Positions 16,882 through 60,993 of a DNA stretch of 64,000 bases are shown in pieces. Every line of letters begins with the position of its first letter. Positions within the stretch are counted from its first letter, which is position 1. The notes under the pieces were generated by a model that worked only from the letters and a program-made list of their open reading frames with translations, did not search any database and was not told the DNA's origin. Both the position numbers and the translations under genes were made by a program. The DNA comes from Acidobacteriota bacterium (GTDB lineage: Bacteria; Acidobacteriota; Terriglobia; Terriglobales; Acidobacteriaceae). The DNA lies in the NCBI GenBank assembly GCA_021803035.1, contig JAJZME010000058.1:19460-83459 (forward strand). The letters run 5' to 3'.

Positions 16882-17901
16882 CTAAGCCGCGTACCGGTAC
16901 TCTTGTTCATGGGCAATCAGCGACCAGATGATGCGTGCGTTCTTGTTGGCAAGGGCGACGCAGGCCTTGGTGGTCCCCAGCCGTTGCTGCTTATCAAGAA
17001 TCCATAGGCTCCGTTTGTCTTTTTTGCTTTTGGCTCGGAAGAGGACGGATCGCGCTCCATGAATCAGCAAGATTCGCAGATATGAATCGCCGCGTTTGCT
17101 GATGCCCAGCAGCCTGCTTTTGCCGCCGCTGGAGTTTTGCCTGGGTACAAGTCCCAGCCAGGCCGAGAACTGGCGCCCGTTTTTGAAGGCATGTCCGTTG
17201 CTGATCGCGGCGACAATCGCCGTTGCGATCAGCGGCCCTACACCTTCGACGGCAGCGATGCGCCGGCAATCCGGGGTGTTTCGGAAGGCAATTTTAATCC
17301 GATGATCGGCATCGGCGATCTTCCCGTCCAGCCCAGCCAGTTCCTCATAGAGGCTGCGAAATAGTTCTCTACTGGAACTCGTCAGCTGGTTTTCACCGTC
17401 CTCCAGCACCGTCGGCAGGCTGCGGCGCACCTGCCCTGGATGTTGCGCCAATACGATCCCATACTCGGCTAAAAGCCCGCAGATCGGGTTGATCAACTGC
17501 GTGCGGCAGGTCACCAGGCGGCTGCGTACCCGATGCAGGCACTGGATGTCTTGCTGTTCGATCGACTTCTGCGGCACGAACCGCATGTGGGGTCGGGTCA
17601 CGGCTTCCGAGATCGCTTCGGCATCGTTGGCATCGTTCTTCTGGGACTTCACATATGGCTTCACGAACTGTGGGGCCATCAGACGAACCGTATGGCCCAA
17701 CCCGCCCAGCATCCGCGCCCAGTAGTGCGCGCTTCCACTGGCTTCGATGCCCACCACACAGGGTTCCAGTACGGAGAAAAAACGCCGCACTTCGTTGCGC
17801 TTCAGCTTGCGCCGAAATACGGTCCAGCCTGCCTTATCCGCTCCATGCACCTGAAAAACCTGCTTCGCAATGTCCAGCCCAATGGTCGCTACCTTCATCA
17901 T
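16882..17901 (-). CDS. IS110 family transposase (IS1111 group)
   Basis: MMKVATIGLDIAKQVFQVHGADKAG.., GIEASGSAHYWARML.., KNDANDAEAISEAVTRP, SAWLGLVPRQNSSGGKSRLLGISKRGDSYLRILLIHGAR; SD AAGGAGG before start. Confidence 0.95.
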   Translation of the reverse strand: MMKVATIGLDIAKQVFQVHGADKAGWTVFRRKLKRNEVRRFFSVLEPCVVGIEASGSAHYWARMLGGLGHTVRLMAPQFVKPYVKSQKNDANDAEAISEAVTRPHMRFVPQKSIEQQDIQCLHRVRSRLVTCRTQLINPICGLLAEYGIVLAQHPGQVRRSLPTVLEDGENQLTSSSRELFRSLYEELAGLDGKIADADHRIKIAFRNTPDCRRIAAVEGVGPLIATAIVAAISNGHAFKNGRQFSAWLGLVPRQNSSGGKSRLLGISKRGDSYLRILLIHGARSVLFRAKSKKDKRSLWILDKQQRLGTTKACVALANKNARIIWSLIAHEQEYRYAA

Positions 17902-17970
17902 CCGTCCTCCTTGTGGCGAGCTTAACAACTCGCCTTTACGAGGCGGGTCCATCCCATTACCCCAATGCAA

Positions 17971-18260
17971 TGTCAAGCCTCATGCGCCACAAGTCACTCC
18001 GATTCAACAGCTTACCGCTGCAGATAATTTCGGCCCCATCGCCGACAATAAAACCATCGGCGGTTCCACACGCCTTCCGCGGAGAACACCGGCATGAGCG
18101 AGCCATTCGCTCCTGTATCTCGCTCAGATAGCCCAGAGCGCGCTCCGCGAGCCTAAACAGCCGGCCTGGAAACGCACCCTCCCCCCCTATAAATATTTTC
18201 TTTTCCACAGAATTTTTTGCAGGTTATTTTCTTGCCAACCAGCATGCAGATGCGAATGGC
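17971..18260 (+). repeat. Dispersed element copy A (internally deleted)
   Basis: Shares 5' block (TGTCAAGCCTCATGCGCC..GCAGATAATTTCGGCCCCATCGCC) and 3' block (CCCCCCCTATAAATATTTTCTTTTCCACAGAATTTTTTGCAGGTTATTTTCTTGCCAAC) with copies B and C. Confidence 0.85.
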
Positions 18261-33979: not shown

Positions 33980-34072
33980 GCGATCTTGTTTCTATTTTGA
34001 TGGGAATGGCGAAAGTTATCTGCAACGCCAAGTAGTTGAGAAAGCGAACTTTTTGAATGCAGGCACTTGACA
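33980..34072 (-). repeat. Dispersed element 5' block, inverted solo copy D
   Basis: Minus strand TGTCAAG..CAACTACTTGGCGTTGCAGATAACTTTC..AAAATAGAAACAAGATCGC aligns with copy C 5' block. Confidence 0.65.
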
Positions 34073-34079
34073 TGTCAAG
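34066..34079. repeat. 14-bp perfect palindrome CTTGACATGTCAAG at the D/B junction
   Basis: Read directly. Confidence 0.85.
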
Positions 34080-34620
34080 CCCCATGCGCCTCAACTTATG
34101 CAAATTAATCAACTTACGTTTGCAGGTAATTTCCGCTCCATCGCCCACAATAGAACCATTGGCGCTCCCACGCGCCTCCAACGGAGAACATGAGCATGAT
34201 GAAGCCAATTCCGCCTGCATCTCAAGACCCAGCCAACCCGCCCGATCCTGCCGAGCCTGTCGCCACCGGAAACCTGGCCGCTGCCCAGTGTGCGCAGGTC
34301 TATCAGCAGACCTACGAAGACGCCCGCCTTAAGGGCGCCAACACCATCCAGGCCAAAGACAGGGCCGCCCGGAAATACCGCGCCGCCATGCCGGCCCCAT
34401 CCGGCCGCGAAGGCATCCGCGACTTCATCGCCTGTATCGCGTACGGCGTGCTCATCGGCGCCGTCAGTACCAGGGAGTCCACGGCGCTTCTCTACGCCGC
34501 TCAAATCGCCCAGGGCGCGCTCCGCGAGCCCAGGGTTCCGGCCCCGAAGCGCCGCTGACCCACCCCCCCTTAAAATATTTTCTTTTCCACAGAAATCTTT
34601 GCAGTTAATTCTTTTCCGGC
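34071..34620 (+). repeat. Dispersed element copy B (longest interior)
   Basis: 5' block TGTCAAGCCCCATGCGCC..TTTGCAGGTAATTTCCGCTCCATCGCC; 3' block CACCCCCCCTTAAAATATTTTCTTTTCCACAGAAATCTTTGCAG. Confidence 0.85.
34190..34558 (+). CDS. Small hypothetical protein carried by dispersed element B (122 aa)
   Basis: MSMMKPIPPASQDPANPPDPAEP..GIRDFIACIAYGVLIGAVSTRESTALLYAAQIAQGALREPRVPAPKRR; flanked by conserved blocks. Confidence 0.75.
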   Translation: MSMMKPIPPASQDPANPPDPAEPVATGNLAAAQCAQVYQQTYEDARLKGANTIQAKDRAARKYRAAMPAPSGREGIRDFIACIAYGVLIGAVSTRESTALLYAAQIAQGALREPRVPAPKRR

Positions 34621-60592: not shown

Positions 60593-60823
60593 TCACCACG
60601 GGCTGATGAGGCAAAGTGGGATTGCCTGCTTGCCCACATCCGGAAATGAGGACCGTTTGCATCTGCATATAGGGTTGGCGAGAAAATAACCTGCAAAAAA
60701 TCTGCGGAAAAAAATATTTTGAGGGGGGATGTAGCGCTTCGGCGGTGCGGGTTCGCGATGCGCGTTCTGCGCCGCCTGAGGATTGGGATCCTCGGATGAA
60801 GCTGGCGCGATTGGCTCAGTCAT
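60593..60823 (-). CDS. Small ORF of dispersed element copy C (MTEPIAPASSEDPNPQ..), likely non-functional read-through
   Basis: Start aligns with copy A/B starts; runs through the 3' block. Confidence 0.35.
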   Translation of the reverse strand: MTEPIAPASSEDPNPQAAQNAHREPAPPKRYIPPQNIFFRRFFAGYFLANPICRCKRSSFPDVGKQAIPLCLISPW

Positions 60824-60948
60824 GGATGTAGTCTCCGCGCAGAGGCGTGCAGAGGCGGTCATGTTTCTATTCTGCGCGGCGGAGCGGAAATGATCTGCAA
60901 AGGTAAGCTGATGAATCCGCAGAAGTTGCGACGCGCGAGGCTTGACCA
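60640..60948 (-). repeat. Dispersed element copy C (internally deleted)
   Basis: Minus strand GTCAAGCCTCGCGCGTCGCAAC..CTTACCTTTGCAGATCATTTCCGCTCC .. CCCCCCTCAAAATATTTTTTTCCGCAGATTTTTTGCAGGTTATTTTCTCGCCAAC. Confidence 0.85.
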
Positions 60949-60993
60949 CTTTTGGGTTGAACCCCTCGGGTGAGAGCGTTTGTAATTTGGCAC

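What the first reader, a model, noticed from the sequence alone, without database searches (positions are those of the whole stretch)
34071..34620. Copy B: candidate full-length member carrying an unknown 122-aa protein
Same ends as A and C but with the longest interior, an ORF with a Pro-rich N-terminus (PIPPASQDPANPPDPAEP) and a conserved-looking C-terminus (RDFIACIAYGVLIGAVSTRESTALLYAAQIAQGALREP). The motif TTTGCAGGTAATTTC in the 5' block recurs as TTTGCAGTTAATTC / TTTGCAGGTTATTTTC in 3' blocks in the same orientation, so each element is bracketed by related direct motifs. Too small for a known transposase; it could be a passenger, a regulator binding the ends, or a factor acting in trans.
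Basis: partly seen in the sequence, partly recalled or inferred. Interest (0 to 1): 0.7.

Follow-up and report, generated by a model that had tools for sequence, protein, structure and literature searches.

The report
Direct-repeat-bounded repeat carrying its parent gene
Copy B is one of only two full-length members of a roughly 95-copy family of small interspersed DNA repeats in an acidobacterium; the unit that gets copied runs exactly from one short direct repeat to the other, and its small helical protein is related to one found next to a phage-type integrase, so it looks like an undescribed miniature mobile-DNA system whose copying machinery is still unknown.

Summary
Copy B (about 34074-34610; direct repeats 34119-34131 and 34598-34610) is a full-length member of a repeat family with 96 3'-block matches in its 3.86-Mb genome (Acidobacteriaceae). 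Only B and one other copy keep the whole ORF; the other copies read are internally deleted. Closely related copies match at about 94% from the first base of the left TTTGCAGNTAATT motif through the right one and fall to background outside, so the direct repeats bound the copied unit. They are not target duplications. In one related species both motifs, in the parent gene and in the short copies, changed together to GTGCGAANNATT. The protein is an undescribed, constrained four-helix family with no library match, found only in this bacterial family in a 396-genome phylum sample. Relatives without the solo-gene leader sit directly downstream of a tyrosine integrase; in one genome that module is a 3.5-kb integrative element. 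That integrase was not found in genomes with the repeats and its att core differs, so the mobiliser is unknown. Best reading: a REPIN/RAYT-like two-tier system built from unrelated parts (0.5). Main rival: gene conversion among old repeats with an ordinary promoter and Rho-type 3' end.

The parts
34074..34118 (+). Left arm (GTCAAGCCCC...ACTTACG), conserved at family level but not copied together with the interior
   Evidence: 10/45 mismatches to the second full-length copy against 11/442 inside, p=3e-6; step in identity at the core
34119..34131 (+). Left direct repeat (core) TTTGCAGGTAATT
34132..34189 (+). 5' leader with conserved CACAATAGAA (possible -10 region) and GGAGAACA ribosome-binding site
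34559..34610 (+). 3' block: C-run, T-rich stretch, TTTTCCACAG and right direct repeat; 96 copies in the genome
34598..34610 (+). Right direct repeat (core) TTTGCAGTTAATT
17969..18230 (+). Copy A: internally deleted copy with both blocks, ORF remnant MSEPFAPVSRSDSPERAPRA
60680..60960 (-). Copy C: internally deleted copy with both blocks

Best explanation
Copy B is a full-length, parental-type copy of a lineage-specific family of short mobile repeats. SHOWN: the unit that is copied runs from the left direct repeat to the right one; the other copies read are internal-deletion derivatives that keep both ends; the ends are carried by the element and are not target duplications; the ends change genome-wide together with those of the parent gene; the protein is under selection and belongs to a family that also sits next to a tyrosine integrase. 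INFERRED: a trans-acting factor recognises the two direct repeats and copies or exchanges the unit between sites; the orfA product, inherited from an integrase-orfA-orfB integrative element, is a DNA-binding or partner component of that machinery. The strand-exchange enzyme is not identified. It works like REPIN/RAYT (one gene, many short non-coding derivatives) but with direct rather than inverted ends and without an HUH transposase.
For: 96 copies of the 3' block but 2 intact ORFs. In 14 close pairs from four genomes identity steps from 64-68% beside the left core (one bin 85%) to 94% at its first base and falls from 87% at the right core to 31%. B and the C82 copy show the same step. Left and right cores of one element are not correlated in G000, G034 and G079. 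In G079 the short copies and the single full-length gene all carry GTGCGAA-type cores at both ends. The full-length gene is syntenic in G033, G034, G078 and G079, dN/dS 0.26-0.54 among the closer orthologues. Sites are empty in relatives outside the clade. Nine relatives read are integrase-linked, one of them in a tandem 3.5-kb integrative element.
Against: No transposition or excision event was observed; no binding data. The enzyme is unknown and the related integrase is missing from the five amplified genomes tested. Many elements sit at orthologous sites in several species, so present activity may be exchange or conversion rather than new insertion. Outside this clade most orfA genes lack the 3' core.
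Confidence: 0.5

Rival explanations
1. Old dispersed gene remnants kept alike by RecA-dependent gene conversion. The 5' block is the gene's promoter and leader and the C-rich 3' block a Rho-type terminator; nothing specific acts at the direct repeats.
For: Orthologous positions with species-typical content. In G005 the leader has a sigma70-like promoter and an intrinsic terminator. A C-rich, G-poor stretch follows the stop codon in most relatives read, as expected of Rho sites (own knowledge).
Against: Identity steps at the cores in independent pairs although the left arm is homologous. It does not explain the original spread to about 96 places, nor why both cores change together. Conversion among many tracts of about 150 bp would be unusual.
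Confidence: 0.22
2. The unit is moved in trans by an unrelated transposase or recombinase of the host (for example IS110-type, HUH-type or Xer), and OrfA is only a passenger.
For: Non-autonomous elements of this size are common in bacteria. An IS110-type transposase gene lies just upstream of copy A. One gene with many short copies resembles REPIN/RAYT (PMC3116915).
Against: No conserved hairpin at the ends, no inverted ends, no Rfam hit in the element. OrfA is intact and constrained and its own ends track those of the short copies. No recombinase inventory was made.
Confidence: 0.14
3. The repeats are functional regulatory or architectural sites: paired binding sites of a regulator (perhaps OrfA itself), kept by selection at fixed places.
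For: Ends better conserved than interior and flanks at orthologous sites. The left core lies about 20 bp upstream of a conserved -10-like CACAAT. Genome-wide change of the motif in G079 fits a binder whose specificity changed.
Against: Non-motif sequence of interior and 3' block is homogenised within each genome as well, which selection on a binding site does not explain. Copy numbers differ widely between related genomes.
Confidence: 0.11
4. The elements are moved by the integrase of the int-orfA module acting on the TTTGCAG cores.
For: Shared gene family and operon context. A short direct-repeat core is usual for tyrosine integrases (own knowledge).
Against: The integrase is absent from the five amplified genomes. 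Its one mapped att core (trpG, 21 bp) is different.
Confidence: 0.03

Closest known systems
REPIN/RAYT systems (PMC3116915, PMC8049555)
   Same: One vertically inherited gene flanked by the repeat ends; a population of short non-coding derivatives dispersed between genes; ends track the gene
   Different: Ends are direct, not inverted palindromes; protein is a four-helix bundle without HUH/Y1 signature; genome has two gene copies; interior derives from the ORF itself
MITEs and other internally deleted non-autonomous elements
   Same: Short, many copies, internal deletion derivatives of a coding parent, both ends kept
   Different: No terminal inverted repeats, no target-site duplication, no recognisable transposase in the parent
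Xer/pdif modules of Acinetobacter (PMC11705084, PMC12907356)
   Same: Small gene modules bounded by short site-specific motifs and exchanged as units (analogy only)
   Different: No 28-bp XerC/XerD site recognised; chromosomal dispersal to about 96 places; Xer involvement not tested
Tyrosine-integrase integrative elements (the int-orfA-orfB module, e.g. G302, L404)
   Same: Carry a homologue of orfA; bounded by a direct-repeat att core
   Different: The solo element lacks integrase and orfB and has a different core; copy number near 100 instead of one or two

Membership tests
REPIN/RAYT | Short copies made of two inverted palindromic REP sequences | tested here: not met
   Ends are direct and without conserved hairpin
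REPIN/RAYT | Gene encodes an HUH/Y1 (RAYT) transposase | tested here: not met
   No Pfam, NCBIfam or PHROG hit; four-helix model; no fold match
REPIN/RAYT | Gene is single-copy, vertically inherited and flanked by the ends of the short copies | tested here: met
   One copy, syntenic in G034, G078, G079 and G033; genome-specific ends. G000 has two copies
MITE of a DDE transposon | Terminal inverted repeats and target-site duplication | tested here: not met
   Ends direct; left and right cores uncorrelated per element
Non-autonomous repeat element in the general sense | Discrete unit dispersed at unrelated places with common ends | tested here: met
Tyrosine-integrase integrative element | Encodes an integrase and is bounded by its att core | tested here: not met
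   No integrase in the unit or detected in the genome; core differs from the G302 module
Xer/pdif module | Movement depends on XerC/XerD acting on dif-like sites | not tested
   dif of this genus was not located
IS110/IS1111-type element | DEDD transposase and bridge RNA in the unit | tested here: inconclusive
   No transposase in the unit and no Rfam hit in the element; action in trans by an IS110 not excluded

The most novel reading that the evidence does not exclude
OrfA is the founding member of a new kind of DNA-mobility factor: a small four-helix protein derived from an integrase operon that specifically recognises paired direct repeats and drives copying or exchange of core-bounded units among about 100 chromosomal sites, a two-tier system unrelated to HUH, DDE or known site-specific recombinase elements.
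Probability: 0.18. Interest if true: 0.88.

Novelty: new variant of a known kind. Interest (0 to 1): 0.62.

Why it matters
Few two-tier repeat systems (one gene, many short derivatives) are known in bacteria, and the well-studied one depends on an HUH transposase. A second, independent case with direct-repeat ends, end-gene coevolution that can be read from genomes, and an integrase-linked ancestor would show that such systems arise more than once. It gives a defined, testable pair (OrfA with TTTGCAGNTAATT or GTGCGAANNATT) for asking how small repeats persist and stay alike for long times.

Tried and rejected
Named protein family: none in Pfam, NCBIfam, PHROGs, PADLOC or PDB sequences; the fold search of the AF2 model gave no match at E<=0.001 in PDB or viral models. 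Phage, plasmid and IMG/VR searches were empty. Rfam: only a tRNA in the window. Intrinsic terminator or forward sigma70 promoter in the blocks of B: not found. RNA structure of the blocks: near shuffles (copy A's 5' block z=-1.9 only). Target-site duplication: rejected by permutation. Pre-existing single-core target sites: not supported. Clean empty versus filled sites: right-flank genes were found without an element in distant relatives, but left flanks were not conserved, so no exact junction could be read. Mobilisation by the integrase of the int-orfA module: not supported.

Full report
1. What is there. The ORF 34190-34558 (122 aa; the alignment of copies points to ATG 34196, 120 aa) lies between two blocks. 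TTTGCAGGTAATT at 34119-34131 and TTTGCAGTTAATT at 34598-34610 are in direct orientation. Copies A and C in the window have the same blocks with a shortened interior. The window is G000:C52:19460-83459 of a 3.86-Mb, 98.5% complete genome. Related loci by name are Acidobacteriaceae/Terracidiphilus MAGs, several named after bog and fen samples.

2. Copy number. A sequence profile of the 3' block (23 copies) finds 96 copies in the genome at E<=1e-3, nearly all above 40 bits, on both strands (43 plus, 53 minus). TTTGCAGNTAATT occurs 63 times, the reversed control 0 times. Of the 63, 37 are left cores, 21 right cores, and 5 have no 3' block nearby (one of these at a contig end). The full-length protein occurs only twice. 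Among about 40 copies read in full, the interior is a deletion remnant that keeps the start region (MTEPI...) and often the C-terminal ALREP codons, with deletion ends near the repeated words encoding AAQ.

3. The copied unit is bounded by the direct repeats. In 14 close pairs from four genomes, identity left of the core is 64% and 68% in the bins at -30 and -10 (the bin at -20 is 85%). It is 94% from the first base of the left core, stays high inside, is 87% at the right core and falls to 69, 52, 43, 34 and 31% after it. B and the second full-length copy (C82) differ at 10 of 45 positions in the arm and at 11 of 442 inside, p=3e-6. So the recent copying of the interior did not include the arm, although the arm is homologous at family level. 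Left and right cores of one element are no more alike than cores of different elements in G000, G034 and G079, and only slightly so in G033. They are therefore element-borne ends, not target duplications. Nearly all cores lie in elements, so no pool of vacant single-core sites is seen.

4. Other genomes. The 3' block is multi-copy in a few genomes of the genus: G033 (37 matches), G034 (35), G079 (32), G078 (20), with fewer in G080, G083 and G091. Some G083 and G091 loci are identical or nearly so to G033 and G034 loci, so contamination of those bins is likely. Elements in G033, G034 and G079 are mostly 135-280 bp core to core. Each genome has its own version. Most strikingly, G079 has GTGCGAANNATT in place of TTTGCAGNTAATT at both ends of its short copies and of its single full-length gene (L374). 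The full-length gene is syntenic in G034, G078, G079 and G033 and under constraint (dN/dS 0.26-0.54 among the closer orthologues; up to 0.85 in distant pairs). Many short elements sit at orthologous sites, with ends conserved and interiors species-typical. In more distant relatives the same genes lack the element. Together this means concerted evolution: exchange or conversion of content at old sites, or repeated insertion at the same sites.

5. The protein family. The alignment of 30 members has invariant C34, P68, C82 and A104. AlphaFold2 gives a four-helix bundle with mean pLDDT 84.5 and a disordered Pro-rich N-terminus. No library or fold match was found. It occurs in 49 of 80 genus genomes, with 19 matches in the complete genome G060, and in only 5 of 396 genomes sampled across the phylum, all in the same family. 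In the solo genes elsewhere in the genus the upstream leader is conserved; in G005 it contains TTGTCA-N17-TATTTT and an intrinsic terminator hairpin before the ribosome-binding site. A C-run closely follows the stop codon in most relatives read, including those without the 3' core. Members without that leader (L049, L050, L052, L060, L051, G005 L284, G060 L356, and G163 and G302 of another genus) lie directly downstream of a tyrosine recombinase (PF00589, E=1.5e-12 for the one tested), and in several the orfA stop codon overlaps the start of a third small gene beginning MTTPTP or similar. In G302 the module is a 3,527-bp unit in perfect tandem with a 21-bp direct repeat at both ends and at the junction, inside the 5' end of trpG: a tyrosine-integrase integrative element.

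6. Mechanism. Shown: dispersal in this clade, core-bounded copying, joint change of ends and gene, constraint on the gene, integrase-linked relatives. Inferred: a factor acting in trans on the cores. Its enzyme is unknown: the related integrase is not detected in G000, G033, G034, G079 or G078, and its mapped core differs. OrfA is the only protein seen to track the ends, which makes it the first candidate for the end-binding component. The strongest rival is gene conversion among old repeats with an ordinary promoter and Rho-type termination. It predicts tract ends that scatter within the homologous arm; the present pairs do not show this, but independent pairs are few.

7. Comparison. It works like REPIN/RAYT (PMC3116915, PMC8049555: a single-copy, vertically inherited gene with a population of short copies), but membership fails on the transposase and on inverted palindromic ends. 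It shares internal deletion with MITEs but fails on terminal inverted repeats and target duplication. No description of this family turned up in three literature searches, which cover open-licence papers only.

Noticed in passing
L049, L050, L052, L404, L405, L407 (also L060 and L406, without the heptamer): The integrase of the int-orfA module is split into two reading frames in all 8 loci read; 6 of 8 have CCCAAAA, a classical X_XXY_YYZ slippery heptamer, where the reading moves to the -1 frame. Candidate programmed -1 ribosomal frameshift in a tyrosine integrase.
   Followed up: partly
L404:5201-12275 (G302): A 3,527-bp int-orfA integrative element in perfect tandem duplicate in the 5' end of trpG, with 21-bp core TTGTCGAGGACGAAGACCATG at both ends and at the junction.
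   Followed up: partly
L279, L282, L283, L285 (G005) and L358-L363 (G060): Solo orfA genes have an intrinsic terminator hairpin with T-run between promoter region and ribosome-binding site, as in an attenuator.
   Followed up: no
window 17530-17900 (-): An IS110-type transposase gene (own reading of the translation) lies just upstream of copy A.
   Followed up: no
Left flanks of many elements, e.g. L152, L173, L109: A second dispersed repeat (GGGTGCCCCATCCATGGCGTCCGC...GGTGGGAAACCAC) often lies directly upstream of the elements in several related genomes.
   Followed up: no
L153/L103 (bins G033/G083) and L174/L112 (bins G034/G091): Contigs identical or 99.5% identical between bins of different species: probable cross-contamination of public MAGs.
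   Followed up: no
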